Of a DNA stretch of 41,366 bases, positions 5,981 to 33,659 are shown one piece after another. A model generated the notes under the pieces. It searched no databases. It was not told the DNA's origin and saw nothing but the letters and a program-made list of their open reading frames with translations. Where the stretch lies: positions 1 through 41,366 of the forward strand of contig NZ_JAUCGJ010000039.1 of the NCBI RefSeq assembly GCF_030378065.1. Direction: 5' to 3'. How positions within the stretch are numbered: the stretch's first letter is position 1; the number at the start of each line of letters is the position of its first letter. The position numbers and the translations under genes are program-made. This stretch comes from Candidatus Venteria ishoeyi. GTDB taxonomy: Bacteria > Pseudomonadota > Gammaproteobacteria > Beggiatoales > Beggiatoaceae.

Positions 5981-8900
5981 CTATTTCCGGATAAAGCTTA
6001 CAGGATTGTTGGCACCGTACAACAACTCACCGTTGCCTAACAGATAACCGGCGTATATGTAATAAGCCCCTGGTGTCGCAAAATGCGCATCCAGTGCAAA
6101 TTGCTCAAAGCGATATTCACCCAAAGCTTCTTCACGATAACCACGCAATCCGGCAATGCTGCCATCCCATGTCTGCCAGCCTGTTGCATCGTGCAATAAC
6201 GTCCCTTGCGGGGTTTGTGCAACCAGCAGCAGTTTGGCATCCTGCTTGTAATGGGTATCACTGTTGATGCGTAAATGCAGCGCCAGTGTTTCACCTGATT
6301 CAATGGTTTTATCAGCATTTTGCATATGTTCAAGGCCATTTACCAGAGACAGGCTGAAACAGTTATTGCCTGCTGGTACAAAACCCTTGCCATCGTGAAT
6401 ATTAAGGCCGGCACTGTTATTATTCCGGCAGGCTTGTGCCAGAACATTCACTTCGAGCGGCTGCGCCTTATCATCCGATTTACCACCATTAAATATCAAG
6501 CGTCCATCACTGAGCAGATAGCCAGTATAGAGCCAATAACGACTGGCTTGAGAAATATCCAGTCGCGTCGATTCGTCGTGTATCAGGCTCAGTTTCTGCG
6601 GCAAACCACCATCAGTCAGGCTGTAATGCTTATAGAAATGCCATTGCGGATGTTGATCACCATGATAGCCATTACTGTGATACTCATGCCATTGCTGACC
6701 ATCGTGCATCCAGGTATGTCCCAGTGAATCTATGGAGACCAGTATCACTGATGCTTCCATACCGACATCGCTGCCAGTGTCCATCCAGGTGTGCAGGGCG
6801 ACCTGATCACCAACAAGCCAATTTGCGGGACGTGGCATACCTGCGCCTTCAAGCATCAATTGTGAACTGATACAGGCAGTTGTGTTGCTGCCTTCCGGTG
6901 TTGGCTGATTGCTCTCTATGGCAGTTGCTGGCAGACACTGATCATCATCGACAATAGTCAACTGTAATAGCGCAGCTGTTGTAAACAAGGCATTACCTTT
7001 TTTAATCGTTAAATCAAAATTCAAGGTTTTGTCCGCTTCGGGAATCGCATTGTCGATGAGTTGAATACGAATTAGTTTTTCTCCTAATTCAGTATTTCCC
7101 CATTCCAACAAATGCTCTCCCCATTCCACAGAGTTACCCGGATTCAGGATTTTATAGTCACGACCTTCAATGGCAGTATTATCTGCACTGGGGCTGAACT
7201 GCATGCTCACAAGACCTTTATCGTTTTCACTGCGTGTGACGGCAAGTTCTATGTGTCTGCCATTTTCTGCAATGCTTAATGATGACTGCGGTGTTAACTG
7301 TGAACTGATACAGGTGGTTGTGTTGCTGCCTTTTGGCAGACACTGATCATCATTGACAATAGTCAACTGTAATAACGCAGTTGTTGTAAACCGGGCATTG
7401 CCTTTTTTAATCGTTAAATCAAAATTCAAGGTTTTGTCCGCTTCAGGAATCGCATTGTCGATGAGTTGAATACGAATTAGTTTTTGTCCTAATTCAGTAT
7501 TTCCCCATTCCAACAAATGCTCTCCCCATTTCACAGAGTTACCCGGATTCAGGATTTTATAGTCACGACCTTCAATGGCAGTATTATCTGCACTGGGGCT
7601 GAACTGCATGCTCACAAGACCTTCATCGTTTTCACTGCGTGTAACGGCAAGTTCCACGTATTTGCCATTTTCAGCAATGCTTGATGATGTCTGCGGCGTT
7701 AATAATGCCAGGTTAATGCCAGTACCACCAGTTCCACCAGTTCCACCAGTTCCACCAGTTCCACCAGTTCCACCAGTTCCACCAGTTCCACCAGTTCCAC
7801 CAGTTCCACCAGTTCCACCAGTTCCACCAGTTCCACCAGTTCCACCAGTTCCACCAGTATTTGCACAAGCAGCAGTAGTGACCTGGGTCGTTACGTCCTG
7901 CGACTCCTGACCATTATAACCAGCTCGCAGGCGGTAGCTGTAAGTTGTACCACAAGTCAAACCCGTATCATTATAACTGGAAGAACCCGCAGCAGGATTG
8001 GTAATCAAATTCCAATCACTGCCACCACTGTCTAAACGTTCCAGTATATAAGTATCAGCATTGGCTACAGCGGTCCAACTCAAGTCCACAGAGGTTTCTC
8101 CAGTTGGTTTTGCAACAAAACCAGTCGGCGCTGTCAGACAAGCTTCAGTGCTCACTTTAATGATGACATTATCAGATTCTCCTCTGCTGTTTTTAGCATG
8201 CAGACGATATTGATAGATCATGCCACAGCTTAAATTGCTGTCAGTGTACTCAGCCGTATTTGCTGGCAGAGGTGAATTAGCCACTGCTGTCCAGTTATTA
8301 CTACCATTGTCAGAACGCTCCAGAATGTAGTTGGCTTCACCTGACACATCTTCCCAGGTGAGACGCAATTCCTGCATACCATTAGGCAGTTTTGGCTGAC
8401 CGACAAAATCACCCGGTGTCGCCGGGGCAGGGCGTGGCGGTGAAACAACCACCGGACAAGCCCCTGCTTCTGTTGTTGTCAGCTTAGCACCCGGCATGGA
8501 TTCCAGCACATTACCAAAGGTGTCAGTGCGATAAGCACGGACTTCAATGGTTGTTGGACTTGGGCAGGCAATATCAATGCTTGTATCAGCACTGTCACCA
8601 CCGGATATAGTGGATATTAAACTGCCGCCTGCATAGACCTTATAACCTTCAGCTACAGGGCTGCCTATGGAGGCAGTCCAGGTTAAGCTTGCCGGGTAGG
8701 TATTAGCTGGAGCAGTAGTAACATCAACTTCCACGGCTAAACCCGTAGGAGGTGCGGGGGACAGAGTGGCTTCAAATGCACCAATATCACAAGCACTACC
8801 TTCGGGGCGGGCTACGCCGCGTTGGTCATCAGCTAAGCAAGCCTCCGTATCAGATGAACCTTCTGCTGAGCTGCCTGCACTGATTGCCATCGTTGGGGTA

Positions 8901-11900
8901 TCACCACCATTGTCCGCTAAGGCTGACAAGCCTGGATCAGTGGTCACTGCTGGTATACCGCAACTGGTGTGAGCACCAAAAATAAGGTTGCTTTCTTCAA
9001 ACACATTATTACCCATCATCGTGCATTGATCGGTACCACCATTATAGGCTAATAACACGTTGATGAGGACTAGTTGTGACTCTGTTTCATCACCACTATC
9101 ACCATTCTCTGGTGTTGGATCATAATCGCCTGCATAAACCCCGCTAGTAATATTAGTATCTTCTGTTGTATTACCTGCAATGGTGCTATAGCTGATATTT
9201 AATTCTGCCCCGGCACCTGAAACAGAACCCGTTCCCGCAGTAGTGGTGTTGCCGCTTACAGTACTGTTACTCATATTTAAGCTTGAGTCTTTCTGTACAT
9301 AAATGGCTGCCCCGGTATTGGCGTTGTTACCGGTTAAGGTACATCCTTCCACATTCGCAGTAGCAGTATCGCCACCAAATGTACCTACCAGGATACCACC
9401 ACCGAAAGCTCCTTCGTTAGATGCACTCGTTGGACTGCCGCCCTGGATTGTCAGGTTTTTGAAGGTCACGGTATTCTTATTGCCATTGACGTGAAAAACC
9501 CGCTCACCAGTTTTTGCAGTAATGGTAACTTTTTTACCCGTACCATCAATAGTGAGGTTTTTGGATAAATCCAAAGGACCATTGGTTAAGGTAATGTTGG
9601 TGGGGTTGGTGGGGAAGGTAATTGTACCACCGTCTTCTACCGAATTAATCGCAGTACGGATGTCACAAGTCGTGCTGTCTGAAGAGCAATCGCCGTTACC
9701 TGAATCACCAGAGCCGGTTATAATTGCCGAAACCAGAGTTGCACTGAGGTCTTCACCAGCAGTGAAATCACCTGCACTACTCAAAGAACCGCTGACACTG
9801 TTACCCGCTGCTGCATTGCCCACTTCCCAGGGATTGGCTTTATAGAATAGGCCTAACATCTTGTCTTCAGCGCCTTGGACGTCATTACTTACATAAGTTG
9901 CCGTTGCATCGGCTGCAAAATCGGTCATATCGGTACTGACAGACCAATAACGCTCAATAAAGTTTGTAGTGCTTAAGTTTTGTGGTTGTTTGGATGTTGT
10001 TACTCTTACACCAACATAGCTACCACCAGTACCGCCTGTGATATCAATATCAATCGGAGTGTATTTTTGACCATCACCTACAGGGAAGGTTTTGCTACCA
10101 CTGCTGTAGGTTTGACGAAGCTCACCTGTGCCTGTGGCAACTACATGTCCAGAACTACCATTAAGGTCAAGGCTTATCATCGTTGCAGTTAGAGTATGGT
10201 CACCTAAAGAGAGCATTGCACCAGCCGATCCTAGAGCTACTTTATCAATACTTCTGTCCCCAATTAAGCTGGCTGAACTAGTACCATTGAGTACTAATCT
10301 TGAGGGGCCATTAATAGCTGGAAATTCATCACCAAAATCACCAGAAACTGTACCCCCTCTGATTAAATCCGTATCACTGCCTGAATAGCTAAAAGTATAA
10401 CCATTGGCATCTACAGTAGCTGGGAATACTCGAGTAAAATAAGCACCTGAACCACTGATACTTAAATTACCTGCCAGCTTCATAGGTTGATAGGGATCGG
10501 TTTGGGATAAACCTTTGGCAAAAGTACCAGAAACATAATGAGTTTGGCTGCCATTTTTAAGAATAATGGGTTTAGTCCCTGCACTTTGACCTGCATTAAC
10601 TGCAAAGACATTCCCCTGCACCTTTAACTCAAGCCCTACTCCTGTAGAATCAATAACGAGGTGGTTAATACTTGGTGCCAATAATTCACTTGGTATATTA
10701 CCCACATCAGCTAAATGTACATTAGTCGCTGTAGTGGGTTTGAGATGTAAACCACTGGCATCGGTATCTGTCCAGTTAGCAATGTTAGTCCAATTTGAGT
10801 CGCCACCTGTACCTGTCCAAATGCTATAGGCTGATGAGTCTAAATAGTTGGAGCTAGAACCAGTTAAAGCAAAGTTAGCCAAGGTACCATTATGCCCGTT
10901 CAAGGAAGAATCCAGGGCTTCGGTCATATCAGTATTGGTTCCACCGGGCTGACCATAGTCAAACTGGTAGTAAGCGACTAGATTAGTTTCGCCAGTTGGA
11001 TTGGGAATGTCGCGGTTCATATATGCGCGGATTTGATCGGTGGTGCGCACGGTGTTCCAGATGCGAACCTCATCAAGATCCCCGTCAAAGAACTCTACAT
11101 AAGTCGACCCACCATTATAGGCCGCACCTAAATTCGTTGGACAGCCAGTTTGAGCGGTATTAATTGCTACATCAATTGAGCCGATAGAGACACCGTCTAC
11201 CAGCACTTCCGTCGCGGTAGCGCCAGGCAGCAATGCAAGGTGATACCAGGTACTCGTATCGAAAGCATGGCTGATGGAACCACTCTTGGATCCATTCCAC
11301 AAGGCTAATTTATCTGAGCTAAGGTGGAAGCTATACCGAGTATTGGGGCCAGTGCAACGATTGGTCAATAATGCGCCATTCTTAAGAAAAGTGTCTGCTT
11401 TGAAACGTAGCTCGATGGTGGAAGAGCCAGCAGCCACGTCTAATGCTGAGTTTGCCGCAATATCAACATGGTCATCCGTGCCATCAAAATTCAACCCATT
11501 CCCCGGCTGGAAGCTGTGTTGTGCTTCGGATTTAATGAAATTATTACTGTCATAATTACCATCGACACCACTAAATGCAAAACGAGTTGCTGCACCATTA
11601 TGTCCATATTGGCTACTGTCAATAATAGTGGTAATGCCAGTATTATCACCATTCGCAGTACCTTGATCGTATTTATGATATAAAGATAAATCAGCTACTG
11701 AATCAGGGTTAGGGATAGGGCCATTCATATAAGCTCTGATTTGAGCCTGTGTCCGTGCAACTTTCCAGATTCGCAGTTCATCCATTGTACCTGGGATGCT
11801 TTCTGGATTAGTAACATCAGCACCGACTTGTAAGTATGCGAAATTGGTGCAAGTACTGGTATCACCCGTAAATGCACCTGCCTCTTCACCATCAATATAA

Positions 11901-13975
11901 AATTGTCCACTACCTGAGCCATCAACTGTGGCAGCAAAATGGAACCAGCGATTGGTAGGTAAGCCACCATCCGGTATACCACCGCCTTTACCAGGACCGA
12001 ACCAGAAAGCGCCACTGGTACTGTATCCCATATTCAAGCAACCACCTGGACCTTGGAAATATTTTGAATATGTTACCCCGCGCTTATAGTTAAGCCAGAA
12101 TTCAACTGTCATAGGAGAATTATCACCAGGCATATCGGCATGTGTTGTATTAACATGATAATAACCACCATAAACAAGCGCACCTGTTGAACGTGGATTT
12201 GTATCAAAATCTAAGGCATTGCCGGGATAAGCTACTTCAGGAATATCTTTAGCAAAAGTAAAACATTGTCCATTAGTATGGTCTTTAGTAATAACCATAT
12301 CACTATTACTACCTGTGAGGGCTTGAACAACAGGTGTGCCGGTGCTGAAATTACAATCAGTATCACTATCGGTGATTATATATTTAGCACCTGTACTAGC
12401 AGGAATGCTATATGGCATTGCAGCAAATTTATCATCATTATCTTGTACCTTCCAGATACGATTCATGGGTAGTTTGCCTAAAACGGATGTACTACTGTAA
12501 TCAGTATCCAGGCCATTATGACCCCAAACAAAAGCGAGGTTATCAGCGGTTACATCGGTAGGTGTTGTTAATGAACCATGTGCAATGGTTAAGATTGCAC
12601 CAACAGTTTCACTGCGGGATTTTGATTGCATTAAATCAGCGTCATCATCATGAGCAATTGCGGCAATACCGTTTAAGAAACCTGCGTTGGTGGTTGCGTC
12701 CCAAACAACGGTTGATCCATCAGAGAAAATGTAATCTTTGTTGAGGGTTGCACCGTATTTAATTGCTAAAGTGGTTTCAGCTTTGTTGATGTCGGCTGTT
12801 GACATGGCTTGGCGATAAAATAGGAATTCGCCTAGTTTGCCTGCGTAAAAACGACCTGTTGATACATTTGCTTTAGATTGGCGACCGATAGACATTGGAC
12901 CTGCATCGGTTGTATGTACAGCAGATTCATTAATTTGAGCTGTGGTGATGGATGTCAAACCACTGACATCTGCACTTCCCAATGTTTCACCATTTACAAA
13001 GACATCACCATTTCCACTAAAATCAAGTTTATAGGTTAAAATGGCAGCATCAGAACCGCTATTATGTGTACCACCAAGTCCTGTACTAAATACCACACCA
13101 TATGACGCTGATTTAGTATATCGAAGACTATAACTGTTTCCTACATGTTTACCATAATCAAAAATAAAATTATCTCCAGCAATAGAACTATGCGTCCGTG
13201 CTGCAAAAATCATGGTTAAACCTGATTTTGTACTATCCACGTCAATATAATCACTACCTAAATTCAAACTTGTATTAACACCATTAAAATCCAAAGCAGG
13301 GCGAAAGTTAAGTCCGTTGTCTGTATCTAAATAGTTTGGTCCAGCAGTACCACTCGCAGTATGAGTGCCAGCTTGACTAACCCAATCGGTGACAGCAGTA
13401 TTATTGGTAGTGGGTGTTGTACCCGCATCAGCTTTAAGCCAAAGTTCTAATTCACCGGAAACATTGCCTGGTGCAGGTGAAATACTATAAGTTACAGGCG
13501 AAGCCCAAACTCCAGATGCATCCCAGGTACAATGATAATAGTTATTATCACCGCTGGTATTTTTAAAATAATAGGTGGTACCACTAACCAAATTATTGGG
13601 TTGTCCCTGAGAACAGGTACTGTCAGAACCATCAATGCAAAAACCAACACTATACTCTTCAGCATTACCAATAGTACGTGTTGCACCATCATCTTTAGTA
13701 ATGACACCACCGGTATCATAGGAATTGCTTTGCGAGGTCATCCAACCTGTTCCACCTTTACAACCACAGACTGAAGCTGGAGCATGACTATTATTTCCTG
13801 CTGTAGTAGAACCTGGGTTGTTAGCAGCATTATTAAGCCAACCATCATTGTCAGTTCTGGCACTACAATTAGTTGGCGCCCCTGCCTGCGCATTCAAGCC
13901 CAGCCCCATCAACAAAAACAAACTCAATAAAGCCAACCAAACCGTTTTGTGTACGGAAAATTTTAGAATATTCAT
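5981..13975 (-). CDS. giant secreted mosaic surface protein (LamG / beta-helix / FN3 / Calx-beta)
   Basis: This 2664-residue exported protein has a signal peptide at residues 1-31 (hydrophobic core LALLSLFLLMGLGL, cleavage after AQA). The domains, in order, are: a Cys-containing N-terminal region; a concanavalin/LamG-like unit (~163-420); two further LamG-like units (~584-755 and ~824-995), each ending in an LDE(V/L)RIW-type strand; a WTGTGG..NW unit (~1049); a CSLREA-like start and right-handed beta-helix (~1425-1640) closed by DPGLSALADNGG...CDIGAFE (~1682-1735); three fibronectin III units (~1745-2035); a Gly-Gly-Thr linker (~2040-2084); two near-identical Calx-beta units (~2092-2208 and ~2228-2347); and a C-terminal region with two copies of a Y(W/Y)(L/I)Y(T/A)GYLL motif. 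There is no autotransporter barrel, LPXTG or PEP-CTERM tail. An adhesin or matrix protein is likely. The ATG is preceded by GAGGAG. The gene is divergent from the exoprotein at 14444. Confidence 0.9.
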   Translation of the reverse strand: MNILKFSVHKTVWLALLSLFLLMGLGLNAQAGAPTNCSARTDNDGWLNNAANNPGSTTAGNNSHAPASVCGCKGGTGWMTSQSNSYDTGGVITKDDGATRTIGNAEEYSVGFCIDGSDSTCSQGQPNNLVSGTTYYFKNTSGDNNYYHCTWDASGVWASPVTYSISPAPGNVSGELELWLKADAGTTPTTNNTAVTDWVSQAGTHTASGTAGPNYLDTDNGLNFRPALDFNGVNTSLNLGSDYIDVDSTKSGLTMIFAARTHSSIAGDNFIFDYGKHVGNSYSLRYTKSASYGVVFSTGLGGTHNSGSDAAILTYKLDFSGNGDVFVNGETLGSADVSGLTSITTAQINESAVHTTDAGPMSIGRQSKANVSTGRFYAGKLGEFLFYRQAMSTADINKAETTLAIKYGATLNKDYIFSDGSTVVWDATTNAGFLNGIAAIAHDDDADLMQSKSRSETVGAILTIAHGSLTTPTDVTADNLAFVWGHNGLDTDYSSTSVLGKLPMNRIWKVQDNDDKFAAMPYSIPASTGAKYIITDSDTDCNFSTGTPVVQALTGSNSDMVITKDHTNGQCFTFAKDIPEVAYPGNALDFDTNPRSTGALVYGGYYHVNTTHADMPGDNSPMTVEFWLNYKRGVTYSKYFQGPGGCLNMGYSTSGAFWFGPGKGGGIPDGGLPTNRWFHFAATVDGSGSGQFYIDGEEAGAFTGDTSTCTNFAYLQVGADVTNPESIPGTMDELRIWKVARTQAQIRAYMNGPIPNPDSVADLSLYHKYDQGTANGDNTGITTIIDSSQYGHNGAATRFAFSGVDGNYDSNNFIKSEAQHSFQPGNGLNFDGTDDHVDIAANSALDVAAGSSTIELRFKADTFLKNGALLTNRCTGPNTRYSFHLSSDKLALWNGSKSGSISHAFDTSTWYHLALLPGATATEVLVDGVSIGSIDVAINTAQTGCPTNLGAAYNGGSTYVEFFDGDLDEVRIWNTVRTTDQIRAYMNRDIPNPTGETNLVAYYQFDYGQPGGTNTDMTEALDSSLNGHNGTLANFALTGSSSNYLDSSAYSIWTGTGGDSNWTNIANWTDTDASGLHLKPTTATNVHLADVGNIPSELLAPSINHLVIDSTGVGLELKVQGNVFAVNAGQSAGTKPIILKNGSQTHYVSGTFAKGLSQTDPYQPMKLAGNLSISGSGAYFTRVFPATVDANGYTFSYSGSDTDLIRGGTVSGDFGDEFPAINGPSRLVLNGTSSASLIGDRSIDKVALGSAGAMLSLGDHTLTATMISLDLNGSSGHVVATGTGELRQTYSSGSKTFPVGDGQKYTPIDIDITGGTGGSYVGVRVTTSKQPQNLSTTNFIERYWSVSTDMTDFAADATATYVSNDVQGAEDKMLGLFYKANPWEVGNAAAGNSVSGSLSSAGDFTAGEDLSATLVSAIITGSGDSGNGDCSSDSTTCDIRTAINSVEDGGTITFPTNPTNITLTNGPLDLSKNLTIDGTGKKVTITAKTGERVFHVNGNKNTVTFKNLTIQGGSPTSASNEGAFGGGILVGTFGGDTATANVEGCTLTGNNANTGAAIYVQKDSSLNMSNSTVSGNTTTAGTGSVSGAGAELNISYSTIAGNTTEDTNITSGVYAGDYDPTPENGDSGDETESQLVLINVLLAYNGGTDQCTMMGNNVFEESNLIFGAHTSCGIPAVTTDPGLSALADNGGDTPTMAISAGSSAEGSSDTEACLADDQRGVARPEGSACDIGAFEATLSPAPPTGLAVEVDVTTAPANTYPASLTWTASIGSPVAEGYKVYAGGSLISTISGGDSADTSIDIACPSPTTIEVRAYRTDTFGNVLESMPGAKLTTTEAGACPVVVSPPRPAPATPGDFVGQPKLPNGMQELRLTWEDVSGEANYILERSDNGSNNWTAVANSPLPANTAEYTDSNLSCGMIYQYRLHAKNSRGESDNVIIKVSTEACLTAPTGFVAKPTGETSVDLSWTAVANADTYILERLDSGGSDWNLITNPAAGSSSYNDTGLTCGTTYSYRLRAGYNGQESQDVTTQVTTAACANTGGTGGTGGTGGTGGTGGTGGTGGTGGTGGTGGTGGTGGTGGTGGTGINLALLTPQTSSSIAENGKYVELAVTRSENDEGLVSMQFSPSADNTAIEGRDYKILNPGNSVKWGEHLLEWGNTELGQKLIRIQLIDNAIPEADKTLNFDLTIKKGNARFTTTALLQLTIVNDDQCLPKGSNTTTCISSQLTPQSSLSIAENGRHIELAVTRSENDKGLVSMQFSPSADNTAIEGRDYKILNPGNSVEWGEHLLEWGNTELGEKLIRIQLIDNAIPEADKTLNFDLTIKKGNALFTTAALLQLTIVDDDQCLPATAIESNQPTPEGSNTTACISSQLMLEGAGMPRPANWLVGDQVALHTWMDTGSDVGMEASVILVSIDSLGHTWMHDGQQWHEYHSNGYHGDQHPQWHFYKHYSLTDGGLPQKLSLIHDESTRLDISQASRYWLYTGYLLSDGRLIFNGGKSDDKAQPLEVNVLAQACRNNNSAGLNIHDGKGFVPAGNNCFSLSLVNGLEHMQNADKTIESGETLALHLRINSDTHYKQDAKLLLVAQTPQGTLLHDATGWQTWDGSIAGLRGYREEALGEYRFEQFALDAHFATPGAYYIYAGYLLGNGELLYGANNPVSFIRK
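6861..7702 (-). repeat. tandem duplication of the Calx-beta coding unit (405-438 bp)
   Basis: The segment 6930-7297 is repeated at 7335-7702 with about 95% identity by eye. The adjoining Cys-containing linker is repeated too (TGTGAACTGATACAGG at 6861 and 7299). The offset changes from 405 to 438 bp because of a 33-bp in-frame indel. Both copies keep the reading frame, so the duplication adds one extra Calx-beta domain. Confidence 0.9.
7725..7859 (-). repeat. 15-copy 9-bp minisatellite coding for Gly-Gly-Thr repeats
   Basis: The unit CCACCAGTT (plus strand) runs uninterrupted for 15 copies; only the last base of the last copy differs. On the coding strand it gives alternating Gly-Gly-Thr triplets, a flexible linker between the third fibronectin III unit and the first Calx-beta unit. 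Because the unit is 9 bp, slippage changes the linker length without breaking the frame. Confidence 0.95.
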
Positions 13976-30555: not shown

Positions 30556-31203
30556 TTAAGTAATTTTAAGCAGTGTGTGAGCGTGTTCAAAAACCTGCCG
30601 GAACATGTCCGGGGTCAAACGTCGGGTTTGGGTGTTATAACGACTGCAATGATAAGCATTGAGCAAACGCAGGCCGTTATCTAATTCGTGTAGGGTGTTA
30701 TGTGCAAACTTACGGCTGCTCAACGGCTGATTACAGGCGCGTAATACCGCTTGATGGGCAATGCCACCCAAGGCCAACACCAGATGATTATCGGGTTTGG
30801 CGGATAATAGTTGATTCAGTTCAGCTTGCAGGTAATGATTACAGGTTTTAATTTCTGCCGTAGTGGGTTTGTTTTCCGGCGGCAGGCATTTAACCGCGTT
30901 GCTAATGCGGCAATGGTAAAGTTCCAGCCCATCATCGGCATTTTCTCCTGTTGCCTGATTACTAAAACCGGCATCAAACAGGGTTTGGTAGAGCAAAATC
31001 CCGGCATAGTCCCCGGTAAAAGGCCGTCCACTGGCATTGGCTCCGTGCTTTCCCGGTGCCAGTCCGACAATTAATAAGCTGGGGTCTTCCACACCAAAAG
31101 GCAATACCGGCTGGTTGTGATAGCCTGGAAATTCCTGGCGCAACACTGCCAGATGTTCAGCCAGACGGGGACAGTCGGTGCATTGTAAGAGTGTTTTACG
31201 CAT
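30556..31203 (-). CDS. uracil-DNA glycosylase, family 5 (UdgB-like)
   Basis: This 215-residue Fe-S uracil-DNA glycosylase excises uracil and other deaminated bases from DNA. Motif A, GLAPGKHGANASGRPFTGD (residues 47-65), is the family-5 form; family 4 has GEAPG followed by acidic residues. Motif B is YHCSRYNTQTRR at about 184-195. The Cys at 8, 11, 106 and 121 are in place for a 4Fe-4S cluster. The ATG at 31203 lies 21 bp from a 7-bp tandem array that occupies its upstream region. It is downstream of tpm with no overlap. Confidence 0.85.
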   Translation of the reverse strand: MRKTLLQCTDCPRLAEHLAVLRQEFPGYHNQPVLPFGVEDPSLLIVGLAPGKHGANASGRPFTGDYAGILLYQTLFDAGFSNQATGENADDGLELYHCRISNAVKCLPPENKPTTAEIKTCNHYLQAELNQLLSAKPDNHLVLALGGIAHQAVLRACNQPLSSRKFAHNTLHELDNGLRLLNAYHCSRYNTQTRRLTPDMFRQVFEHAHTLLKIT

Positions 31204-31223
31204 TAATTGAATTTCCAGCAGAT

Positions 31224-31327
31224 GGTTTACGGTTTACGGTTTACGGTTTACGGTTTACGGTTTACGGTTTACGGTTTACGGTTTACGGTTTACGGTTTAC
31301 GGTTTACGGTTTACGGTTTACGGTTTA
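31224..31327. repeat. heptanucleotide tandem array, about 15 copies of GGTTTAC
   Basis: An uninterrupted run of the 7-bp unit GGTTTAC (GTAAACC on the other strand), about 14.9 copies with no mismatches, fills the space between tpm and the UDG gene. It resembles the STRR class of heptamer repeats known from cyanobacteria. It has no strong stem-loop potential. It separates the UDG start codon from any promoter further upstream. Confidence 0.95.
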
Positions 31328-31376
31328 GTAAAAAAAAGAAGCCGATAAGTGTCAAGCAATAATGTGTAACTATCAT

Positions 31377-32033
31377 TTACAAACGTGTTAAACGATAAAT
31401 AACTTCATCCATTTGCGCTAAACCACGCTGCTGAAAACGCGGATTATCGGCTAAAATATCCACCCGATCCAGACATTCAACCGAAAAATTCTGTGCATAT
31501 AATTGTTTGATTTCGCTTTCCGTCACAGAAAATGGTGGGCCATCCATCTGTGTTTGCGGGTATTCCATGCTGATTAATAAAATCGGTGTATCCGGTGGCA
31601 ACAGTTGCGCCATCTTTTCTGCGTATTGCTGACGCATCGCCGGGGGCAGTGCTACCAGTGAAGCCCGATCATAAACCGCATTAAAACCCTGCAAGTCATC
31701 GGTTTCCAGAGCAAAAAAATCCCCCTGCAACAAGCATAACTGATCCTGCTGCCAGCACTGGAAAGCCCCTTGGCTTTGTATCGTGGGGGTTAAGCCATTT
31801 TCCGAAAAAAAATCTTCAATGGCTGTTTCACTGGTTTCAATACCAATAACTTCCAGTCCCTGCTCTAACAGCCATAGCATATCCAGGGTTTTACCACATA
31901 AAGGCACAAACACCTGGCTTTGTACGGGCAAGTCCAGTTGATGCCAGTATTTTTGCAAATAAACATTTATATCCGCCTGATGAAAGCCGATTTTCCCAGC
32001 TTCCCAGCGTTGATGCCAGAATTCAAGTTTCAT
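31377..32033 (-). CDS. tpm: thiopurine S-methyltransferase
   Basis: This 218-residue SAM-dependent methyltransferase belongs to the TPMT family, which in bacteria methylates thiols and selenium or tellurium compounds. The N-terminal signature FWHQRWEAGKIGFHQADIN and VFVPLCGKTLDMLWLLEQG (SAM binding, ~42-60) are diagnostic. The VIGIETSETAI segment and YDRASLVALPP follow. Length agrees with the bacterial family (about 215-218). It begins 18 bp downstream of the nuclease-like gene and is probably the last-but-one gene of the leftward run. Confidence 0.93.
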   Translation of the reverse strand: MKLEFWHQRWEAGKIGFHQADINVYLQKYWHQLDLPVQSQVFVPLCGKTLDMLWLLEQGLEVIGIETSETAIEDFFSENGLTPTIQSQGAFQCWQQDQLCLLQGDFFALETDDLQGFNAVYDRASLVALPPAMRQQYAEKMAQLLPPDTPILLISMEYPQTQMDGPPFSVTESEIKQLYAQNFSVECLDRVDILADNPRFQQRGLAQMDEVIYRLTRL

Positions 32034-32051: not shown

Positions 32052-32678
32052 CTAAGTTTTCGTTAAAATGCCCATTAATATTGAAAATACCTTTTCAATA
32101 TCGGCAGGGATGGTATAGCTGTTAATGTCTTTGCTAATCTGCTTTTCTTGTCTTTTCAGAATACCAAATTTCCATACATCACCAATACTGATCGCGCCAT
32201 ATAATACATTACTGGTATTATCATCCTCATACTTATCCAAGGCGATTAATTCAGCGGATAATTGATTAAAACCTTTATCCAAATCCCCTTTTTTGGCTTC
32301 AATGACAATGATTTCCTGTTTTAACTGGATTAAATAATCCAAAGAACCACTTAATCTGTCATCGACTTCAAGCGCGTATTCAACATTAATTTTAGAGGCT
32401 GTATTTTTAGCAATCTCCACTAAAATAGGCGCAATCAGAAATTCCCGCTTGGCAATTTCTGAATTAATAATAATTTTTGGCAGAATGGTGTATAAGGTTT
32501 GTTGAAGCTTGTTGATTTCATCAATACTGTAATCATTTGATCTTGGAAGATGAATGACTTCGTAAGAAAAAGCATAACCCAGTTCCGCAACAATCTCTTC
32601 TGTGGGACTGTTTAGCTCAAAGTAGTCACTGAAGGTATATTTTTTACCGGCTTTAAAAATAGATTTTTTCATATCCAA
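32052..32678 (-). CDS. PD-(D/E)XK nuclease-fold protein, possible restriction partner
   Basis: This 208-residue protein has a plausible PD-(D/E)XK active site: Asp114 in GSLDYLI, and Glu127 with Lys129 in IIVIEAKKGD, followed by a conserved Gln in FNQLSAEL. The C-terminal segment YGAISIGDVWKFGIL resembles that of stand-alone nuclease-like proteins and HsdR N-terminal domains. It starts directly at the end of the DNA methyltransferase gene (stop and start abut), so the two are co-translated. It could be the restriction enzyme of a type II system or an accessory nuclease. The active-site call is from the motif only. Confidence 0.65.
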   Translation of the reverse strand: MDMKKSIFKAGKKYTFSDYFELNSPTEEIVAELGYAFSYEVIHLPRSNDYSIDEINKLQQTLYTILPKIIINSEIAKREFLIAPILVEIAKNTASKINVEYALEVDDRLSGSLDYLIQLKQEIIVIEAKKGDLDKGFNQLSAELIALDKYEDDNTSNVLYGAISIGDVWKFGILKRQEKQISKDINSYTIPADIEKVFSILMGILTKT

Positions 32679-33659
32679 TTACCGGGATTTAATTTGTGCA
32701 GCTTGCGTATTACGTTCCCAAAAACAGCCATCCACATAACCTTGTATGCTTTGCACTTGCTCAGCCATTGCCAAACGCTTTTCTGTCAGACAGCAATAAT
32801 CCTGATCGATTTCAATGCCAAAATATTGGCGTTTTAATTTTTTAGCAACCACGGCGCTGGTACCACTACCAAGAAAAGGATCAAACACCACATCGCCAGG
32901 ATTTGATGAAGCCAGAACCAATTTGGCAATCAGTTTTTCCGGTTTCTGGGTAGGGTGGTCGGTATTTTCTGGCATAGACCAAAAAGGGATGGAAATATCA
33001 GTCCATAAATTAGAAGGGTGGGTGATTCTAAACTTCCCTTCATCAGTTTCTTGCCAGTCTTTGGGTTTACCTTGTTTATCGGTATAAGGCGCAATCACTT
33101 TACGCCTCATTTTTACCGCATCAACATTAAACGTATAATCATTGGATACGGTACAAAACCAGATATCTTCAGCACAATTTTTCCAGTTGGTTTTTGCGCC
33201 CCGGCCTTTTTCCCGCTCCCAGGTGATACGGTTTCGGATATGAAAATATTGCTGAGCCACGCGATGTATGGCGCTGGAAGATTGCCAGTCACCACAGATA
33301 TACAATGAAGCAGTTTTCTTTAAGGTTGGTAACAAGGCTTTAATCCAGGAATCCAGCCATATTTCATAGTCATCCAGGTTTTTTTTAGTAAACTGGCGAC
33401 CATTAAACGCCTTATTCATATTATAAGGCGGATCAACAATCAGTAAATCAACGCAGTGCGCAGGAAGCAAAGGCAAGGCATCGTGCAAGTCCTGATGAAT
33501 TACCTTACCAAAAACCTGCTCAGGTTCTGCTTTTGCGCTTAACGACAGCAGATGCCGAGAAAAAGACTTTTTATCGGCTTCAGTTAAAACTGTCGTGCGA
33601 TTTCTGGGTGCTTTTTTTGTTGCGCTTTTTTTTCTCTGGGTGCTTGTTTTACTCAACAT
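32679..33659 (-). CDS. site-specific DNA methyltransferase, beta class (N6-adenine or N4-cytosine)
   Basis: This 326-residue amino-methyltransferase has its catalytic motif IV, DPPYNMNK, at residues 76-83, ahead of the SAM motif I VFDPFLGSGTS (258-268). This order marks the beta class. The region between (about 140-230, with RNRITWEREKGRG and LWTDISIPFW) would hold target recognition. HPTQKPEKLI at 235-244 is the usual lead-in to motif I. A basic N-terminal tail (RKKSATKKAPRNR) precedes the core. The start overlaps the merR stop (TGATG). With the abutting nuclease-like gene it may be a type II restriction-modification unit at the tail of the pheST-ihfA operon. Confidence 0.88.
   Translation of the reverse strand: MLSKTSTQRKKSATKKAPRNRTTVLTEADKKSFSRHLLSLSAKAEPEQVFGKVIHQDLHDALPLLPAHCVDLLIVDPPYNMNKAFNGRQFTKKNLDDYEIWLDSWIKALLPTLKKTASLYICGDWQSSSAIHRVAQQYFHIRNRITWEREKGRGAKTNWKNCAEDIWFCTVSNDYTFNVDAVKMRRKVIAPYTDKQGKPKDWQETDEGKFRITHPSNLWTDISIPFWSMPENTDHPTQKPEKLIAKLVLASSNPGDVVFDPFLGSGTSAVVAKKLKRQYFGIEIDQDYCCLTEKRLAMAEQVQSIQGYVDGCFWERNTQAAQIKSR

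What the first reader, a model, noticed from the sequence alone, without database searches (positions are those of the whole stretch)
31224..31327. Perfect heptanucleotide array at the 5' side of a DNA-repair gene
About 15 identical copies of GGTTTAC stand 21 bp before the start codon of a family-5 uracil-DNA glycosylase. Heptamer STRR arrays are known from cyanobacteria but are unusual in gammaproteobacteria. Copy number could change UDG expression and so mutation rate. The unit also resembles telomere-type repeats (TTTAGGG with one change), which is likely coincidental.
Basis: partly seen in the sequence, partly recalled or inferred. Interest (0 to 1): 0.65.

Follow-up and report, generated by a model that had tools for sequence, protein, structure and literature searches.

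The report
Genome-wide seven-base repeats at gene ends
The perfect 15-fold repeat of a seven-base word in front of a DNA-repair gene is real, but it is one of eleven such arrays scattered at the ends of unrelated genes in this bacterium, a known kind of repeat with a striking fixed orientation whose purpose is unproven.

Summary
The array is real: 14.9 perfect copies of GGTTTAC at 31224-31327, 20 nt before the start of a minus-strand uracil-DNA glycosylase. It is not special to that gene. The same unit forms 11 arrays (3.4-14.9 copies) in the 4.41-Mb genome and none in 24 same-family genomes. The neighbouring genes show no common theme.

Heptamer arrays are already described in Gammaproteobacteria, including TAACTGA in Beggiatoaceae, which is probably this family. 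So this is a new member of a known kind.

Two features stand out. (1) Ten of 11 arrays abut a gene end within 20 nt, with the G-rich strand pointing away from that gene. The rule also holds in TAACTGA-bearing relatives and Desulfobacterales HSG2, and matches one published for GGGNATC repeats. (2) A promoter-like TTGACA-17-TTTACT ends on the first base of the array, so the array is probably the UDG mRNA leader. That is the layout of the Haemophilus hmw1A P2 promoter, where extra heptamers lower expression.

Copy-number control of UDG is plausible but untested; an effect on mutation rate is speculation.

The parts
31224..31327 (-). Heptanucleotide array, 14.9 perfect copies; GGTTTAC on the plus strand, GTAAACC (AACCGTA) in the sense of the UDG gene
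30556..31203 (-). Uracil-DNA glycosylase gene (215 aa, family-5-like), 20 nt downstream of the array
   Evidence: start codon consistent with the N-termini of 4 of 5 orthologues
31377..32033 (-). Thiopurine S-methyltransferase gene; its stop codon lies 49 nt upstream of the array
31327..31355 (-). Promoter-like element TTGACA - 17 nt - TTTACT, whose last base is the first base of the array; 10 of 12 consensus matches (inferred, not proven)
   Evidence: not listed by the stricter scan
31214..31216 (-). GGA, possible ribosome-binding site, 10 nt before the ATG (inferred)
   Evidence: read from the sequence

Best explanation
The array is one copy of a lineage-specific family of dispersed heptanucleotide tandem arrays of the STRR/TAACTGA kind that sit at gene ends in a fixed orientation. 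Shown: 11 arrays of one unit and varying length, 10 of them within 20 nt of a gene end with the G-rich strand pointing away from that gene. Inferred: they grow and shrink by strand slippage in 7-nt steps, and copies that disturb genes are lost. Inferred: at this locus the array is the transcribed leader of udg. RNA polymerase would start at its upstream edge, so the mRNA would begin with about 14 copies of unfolded AACCGUA, then a GGA site and the AUG. Copy number would then set leader length. As at the Haemophilus hmw1A P2 promoter it may tune transcript level modestly, but udg is not a dedicated phase-variable gene. The cause of the fixed orientation is not established.
For: One unit at 11 loci of unrelated genes, absent from 24 same-family genomes. 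Placement within 20 nt of the 5'-side gene has P about 5e-9 under uniform placement for the 9 of 11 arrays that could be scored. Stop-codon-only test, gap <=25 nt on the 5' versus 3' side of the G strand: G000 6/8 vs 1/8, P 0.02; relatives G002+G005+G017 10/13 vs 3/15, P 0.004; HSG2 26/27 vs 4/20, P 5e-8; other named loci 25/42 vs 8/40, P 3e-4. Same rule in print for GGGNATC; 7-nt indels between two Cyanothece strains for TAACTGA. Promoter-like element ending on the array: P 0.01 at udg; 3 of 5 start-proximal arrays with P < 0.05, sum over five P 0.0005. The hmw1A P2 precedent. Leader strand less folded than all 200 shuffles.
Against: No strain or read data, so copy-number change is not shown for this genome. 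The promoter is consensus only; the scan tool did not list it, the position window was chosen after seeing the udg site, and 18 start-proximal arms in relatives show no enrichment (P 0.56). Two arrays of the same unit in G080 do not follow the rule; L153 in G000 does not either. Non-AACYG heptamers in the same loci show no clear preference (10/34 vs 7/30). Start-side counts in G000 alone are not significant (4/7 vs 0/5, P 0.07) and in 'other named' loci neither (15/34 vs 7/24, P 0.19).
Confidence: 0.6

Rival explanations
1. Dedicated contingency locus: slippage of the array switches or tunes UDG, and so uracil repair and mutation rate, as heptamers tune the HMW1 adhesin in Haemophilus influenzae.
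For: The UDG array is the longest of the 11; -10-like hexamer overlaps the first repeat as in hmw1A P2, where more repeats lower expression.
Against: Ten sister arrays at genes without a common theme, half of them after stop codons; ribosome-site opening energy 10.1 to 9.6 kcal/mol for 0 to 30 copies; no strain data.
Confidence: 0.12
2. RNA-structure element: leaders carry the strand that does not fold, trailers carry the strand that folds through G-U pairs (3' hairpin against exonucleases), and this sets the orientation.
For: AACCGUA strand z +2.5 and +3.6, GGUUUAC strand z -2.6 with 0 of 200 shuffles folding as well; similar asymmetry for most units tried, and the G-rich strand is the more structured in 992 of 1176 skewed heptamers sampled.
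Against: TAACTGA folds on neither strand yet follows the rule in relatives; inverting the udg array in silico does not close the ribosome site (opening energy 6.6-9.6 against 9.6-10.1 kcal/mol).
Confidence: 0.13
3. Orientation rule is an artefact of ORF calling and sampling: arrays are plain slippage products kept in any spare intergenic DNA.
For: AACCGTA carries stops in all three frames, so called starts are drawn toward the array; no clear preference for other heptamers (10/34 vs 7/30 at stops); G080 does not follow it.
Against: The rule holds for stop codons alone in four independent sets; paired arms in HSG2 are G-first in 25 of 26 opposite-strand pairs; independent report for GGGNATC.
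Confidence: 0.1

Closest known systems
TAACTGA direct repeats of marine Beggiatoaceae (MacGregor 2015, PMC4679880; abstract and sections read)
   Same: Dispersed tandem heptamers, mostly intergenic, close before start codons in one orientation, downstream genes without a theme; rotated to AACTGAT the unit shares the frame AACYGNN with AACCGTA; same family by inference.
   Different: Unit AACCGTA instead of AACTGAT; no run of three TAACTGA in this genome, though one AACTGAT-rich site exists; 2-6 copies there, 3.4-14.9 here; about half of the arrays here follow stop codons.
GGGNATC repeats of Xanthomonas and Nostoc (Rehm 2015, PMC4692102; abstract and two sections read)
   Same: Heptamers spread over the genome; G-rich strand antisense before ORFs and sense after stops; nearer to the 5' neighbouring ORF.
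   Different: GGG runs that form G-quadruplexes in vitro and a preference for four units; here only GG, with longer arrays.
ATCTTTC array of Haemophilus influenzae hmw1A P2 (PMC8262952; passages read)
   Same: Heptamer array in the 5' UTR; the -10 box shares bases with the first repeat.
   Different: Dedicated to an adhesin, with measured effect of copy number and a second promoter beyond the array; here the gene is a repair enzyme, the promoter is inferred and no effect is measured.
Cyanobacterial STRR heptamers (recalled; the original papers were not read)
   Same: Dispersed tandem heptamers in intergenic DNA.
   Different: Different units and phylum.

Membership tests
Dispersed intergenic heptanucleotide arrays (STRR/TAACTGA kind) | Tandem 7-bp unit, several copies | tested here: met
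   14.9 perfect copies
Dispersed intergenic heptanucleotide arrays (STRR/TAACTGA kind) | Same unit at many loci of one genome | tested here: met
   11 arrays on 11 contigs
Dispersed intergenic heptanucleotide arrays (STRR/TAACTGA kind) | Intergenic position | tested here: met
   10 of 11 wholly between the called genes; at L150 an ORF ends 22 nt inside the array
Dispersed intergenic heptanucleotide arrays (STRR/TAACTGA kind) | Copy number varies between strains | not testable with these tools
   no second genome of the genus was found among the relatives drawn; copy number varies between loci, 3.4-14.9
TAACTGA repeats of Beggiatoaceae | The unit TAACTGA | tested here: not met
   0 hits for three copies in G000
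TAACTGA repeats of Beggiatoaceae | Just before start codons, forward orientation | tested here: met
   5 of 11 arrays, all five with AACCGTA in gene sense
GGGNATC G-quadruplex repeats | GGG runs and G4 formation | tested here: not met
   unit has only GG; G4 formation itself was not assayed
GGGNATC G-quadruplex repeats | Nearer to the ORF on the 5' side of the G-rich strand | tested here: met
   10 of 11 arrays within 20 nt of the 5'-side gene; stop-only test 6/8 vs 1/8
hmwA-type phase-variable promoter array | -10 box shares bases with the first repeat, array in the 5' UTR | tested here: inconclusive
   TTGACA-17-TTTACT ends on the array, P 0.01; no transcript data; not listed
hmwA-type phase-variable promoter array | Expression depends on copy number | not testable with these tools
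   needs strains or reporters
Eukaryote-type telomere repeats | Position at molecule ends | tested here: not met
   all 11 arrays internal, at least 6.9 kb from a contig end

The most novel reading that the evidence does not exclude
Period-7 arrays with the core AACYG (AACCGTA here, AACTGAT in relatives, mixtures in Desulfobacterales HSG2) are one cross-phylum class, laid down or kept by a common process that points the G/T-rich strand outward from the nearest gene end and builds G-first palindromes across intergenic regions (25 of 26 opposite-strand neighbour pairs in HSG2). The process could be copying of repeats onto 3' ends, or pairing between trailer and leader RNAs that share one unit genome-wide. 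The udg leader is one such site.
Probability: 0.15. Interest if true: 0.75.

Novelty: new member of a known kind. Interest (0 to 1): 0.42.

Why it matters
The array adds a unit that I did not find in print to the bacterial heptamer arrays (searched six 13- or 14-base forms of it in the held library; the single match is in a telomerase-RNA paper, seen as a listing only). It suggests that the orientation rule reported for GGGNATC also holds for quite different units in other lineages. That makes an open question testable: what gives such arrays a fixed polarity relative to gene ends? The udg locus is a convenient reporter target because promoter-like site, array, ribosome site and start codon follow one another within about 155 bp.

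Tried and rejected
Other units in G000 are known only from the stretches taken and from the AACYG pattern. The window and the 20 stretches held, besides the 11 GGTTTAC arrays, 9-bp arrays in the window and in L155 and one AAAAAAT run of three copies in L157. The three stretches were scanned for AACYG arms and for period 7.

Orthologous site in relatives: TPMT lies beside UDG in 0 of 5 loci with a close UDG orthologue (L165-L169), so the insertion cannot be dated there.

RNA folding as the cause of the orientation: attractive but not carried by TAACTGA nor by the udg ribosome site; kept as a rival. Promoter at the array edge as a general rule: 3 of 5 start-proximal arrays in G000, no enrichment in 18 arms of relatives. 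Extending the rule to any G-skewed heptamer: not supported (10/34 vs 7/30). G-quadruplex (only GG) and telomere (arrays internal) rejected. The degenerate AACYG pattern is not free of background: its backward control had 7, 3 and 1 hits in G002, G032 and G033, and 0 in G000.

Caveats on counts. My ORF caller is crude. The 120-aa floor dropped the 117-aa DUF3301 gene beside the L150 array, which then counts against the rule although the gap is 2 nt. Start-side counts are biased by the stops in AACCGTA. L114 and L130 are the two ends of one HSG2 contig with the same two arms, so two arms are counted twice. One search left out arms lying inside called ORFs and did not print how many for G000, HSG2 and the other named loci, with a lower ORF floor, had put 16 (HSG2) and 11 (others) inside ORFs, a number of them apparently spurious ORFs running through arrays. 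L150 and L153 were left out of the placement test.

Full report
What is there. The window is a whole contig (C52) of a 4.41-Mb draft genome (contig length). At 31224-31327 stand 14.9 perfect copies of GGTTTAC. Both flanking genes are on the minus strand. The upstream gene is a thiopurine methyltransferase whose stop lies 49 nt from the array; the downstream gene is a uracil-DNA glycosylase whose ATG is 20 nt from it. The UDG start is credible because 4 of 5 orthologues have N-termini of similar length and sequence (L165, L167-L169).

A genome-wide family. A three-copy pattern has 54 overlapping hits in G000 and 0 for the pattern read backwards. They form 11 arrays on 11 contigs with 3.4 to 14.9 copies; the one before UDG is the longest. 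None of the 39 other genomes searched (24 same family, 15 same class) has one. In a sample of 369 genomes of the class, the four-copy pattern hits 2, G000 and G080. A degenerate pattern AACYGNNAACYGNNAACYG adds three places in G000 (C17, C53, C64; one AACTGAT-rich, one AACTGAC-rich) and a second, opposite arm beside the C78 array. By my reading of the titles, 31 are from Desulfobacterales bacterium HSG2, 12 from Wenzhouxiangella and 24 from Bacteroidota; the rest include Chloroflexi, Paenibacillus, other Proteobacteria and a cyanobacterium. The unit thus recurs across phyla but is patchy.

Which organism. G002 is one contig of 4,810,005 bp with 10 hits for three TAACTGA copies. A finished 4.8-Mbp genome is reported for Thioploca ingrica (passages), which MacGregor says has very few TAACTGA direct repeats. 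G010 (4.3 Mb, 3 contigs, no TAACTGA arrays) would fit a freshwater Beggiatoa. The family is therefore probably Beggiatoaceae; this is inference.

Position and orientation. With the annotation, 10 of 11 arrays lie within 20 nt of a gene end. Five are before start codons (UDG gap 20, L145 gap 3, threonine dehydratase L147 gap 5, glycosyltransferase L149 gap 9, L152 gap 2, or 14 if a later ATG is the start), all with GTAAACC in mRNA sense. Five are after stop codons (L144 gap 1, L146 gap 1, QueC L148 gap 0, DUF3301 L150 gap 2, L151 gap 16), all with GGTTTAC in mRNA sense. At L150 a second, facing ORF ends inside the array, and at L151 the facing gene ends 28 nt away; these are in the opposite sense. 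Read outward from the nearest gene, the ten arrays read GGTTTAC. L153 is the exception (218 nt), and it has a degenerate opposite arm toward the next gene. Uniform placement would give gaps of at most 20 nt for the nine arrays scored with P about 5e-9.

Fair test. AACCGTA contains stops in all frames, so called start codons can be drawn to the array. Stop codons alone give, for gaps of at most 25 nt on the 5' versus the 3' side of the G strand: G000 6/8 vs 1/8 (P 0.02); G002, G005 and G017 together 10/13 vs 3/15 (P 0.004); HSG2 26/27 vs 4/20 (P 5e-8); other named loci 25/42 vs 8/40 (P 3e-4). Start codons give 4/7 vs 0/5 (P 0.07), 17/31 vs 0/14 (P 2e-4), 28/33 vs 0/3 (P 0.008) and 15/34 vs 7/24 (P 0.19) in the same order. 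Against the rule: the two arrays of G080 lie nearer the 3'-side gene, and non-AACYG heptamer arrays in the same loci show no clear preference (10/34 vs 7/30 at stops). In HSG2, neighbouring arms on opposite strands stand G-first in 25 cases and C-first in 1. Two HSG2 arms are counted twice (L114/L130).

Comparison with print. MacGregor 2015 (abstract and the sections shown) describes 169 TAACTGA sets in one Beggiatoaceae genome, mostly forward and close before start codons, and, mostly, 7-nt indels at matching sites of two Cyanothece strains. Rehm 2015 (abstract and two sections) reports for GGGNATC in Xanthomonas and Nostoc that intergenic repeats lie nearer the 5' neighbouring ORF whatever its orientation, which is the same rule. 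They generally saw no association with mobile elements and think phase variation unlikely. Of six 13- or 14-base forms of the present unit, one occurs in one paper of the library, on telomerase RNA (listing only).

Mechanism. On the minus strand a TTGACA-17-TTTACT element ends on the first base of the array. A score of 10 of 12 at that position is reached by 1% of shuffles; summed over the five start-proximal arrays, P is 0.0005. The position window was chosen after seeing the udg site, the tool's scan did not list the element, and 18 start-proximal arms of relatives show no enrichment (P 0.56). If the element is used, the array is the leader of the UDG mRNA. That is the architecture of Haemophilus hmw1A P2, whose -10 box includes bases of the first heptamer and whose transcript carries the repeats in its 5' UTR; there, more repeats mean less transcript (passages). 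The leader strand is less folded than all 200 shuffles while the opposite strand folds better than all 200. Yet the predicted opening energy of the udg ribosome site stays at 10.1 to 9.6 kcal/mol for 0 to 30 copies and is not raised by inverting the array. If copy number matters, transcription is thus the more likely route than blocked ribosome binding.

Shown: sequence anatomy, the array family and its orientation. Inferred: promoter, leader, slippage. Not shown: any effect on UDG or mutation rate.

Verdict. A real, non-random array and a new member of a known kind of dispersed heptamer repeat. It is interesting for the polarity rule and the hmw1A-like layout, less for the idea of a tunable mutation rate.

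Noticed in passing
HSG2 loci, e.g. L031:4860-5117, L034:5277-5681, L126:2461-2888: Large G-first palindromes of mixed AACYG heptamers fill intergenic regions: left arm (CGGTTNN)n, spacer of 3-50 bp, right arm (AACYGNN)n; 25 of 26 opposite-strand neighbour pairs have this polarity.
   Followed up: partly
window 6929-7858: A 405-bp unit repeated 1.9 times, followed by 15.6 copies of a 9-bp unit, both inside a 2664-aa minus-strand ORF (5981-13975), perhaps a repetitive surface protein.
   Followed up: no
L145:5116 and L149:5009; also window 40718 and L217:570-592: A short palindromic element (CTCGTTCCC...GGGAACGAG) stands directly beside two of the 11 arrays, on the side away from the gene.
   Followed up: no
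window 32052-33659: An N6/N4 DNA methyltransferase gene next to a 208-aa ORF without a Pfam or NCBIfam hit; possibly a restriction-modification pair.
   Followed up: no
L144:6146-6388 and L152:6109-6324: Nearly the same short ORF translation (…LPFQGVNGTDTIPGVLPLAILM…) occurs 0.3-1 kb from two arrays, which points to another dispersed repeat.
   Followed up: no
L114 and L130 (both ends of JAUCGI010000002.1): The two ends of one HSG2 contig carry the same arrays and flanks in opposite orientation: an assembly artefact or a terminal inverted duplication.
   Followed up: no
L041, L049, L084, L092, L113 (Wenzhouxiangella and CSSed contigs): GGTTTAC arrays lie at contig ends, so short-read assemblies break in them and copy numbers there are lower bounds.
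   Followed up: no
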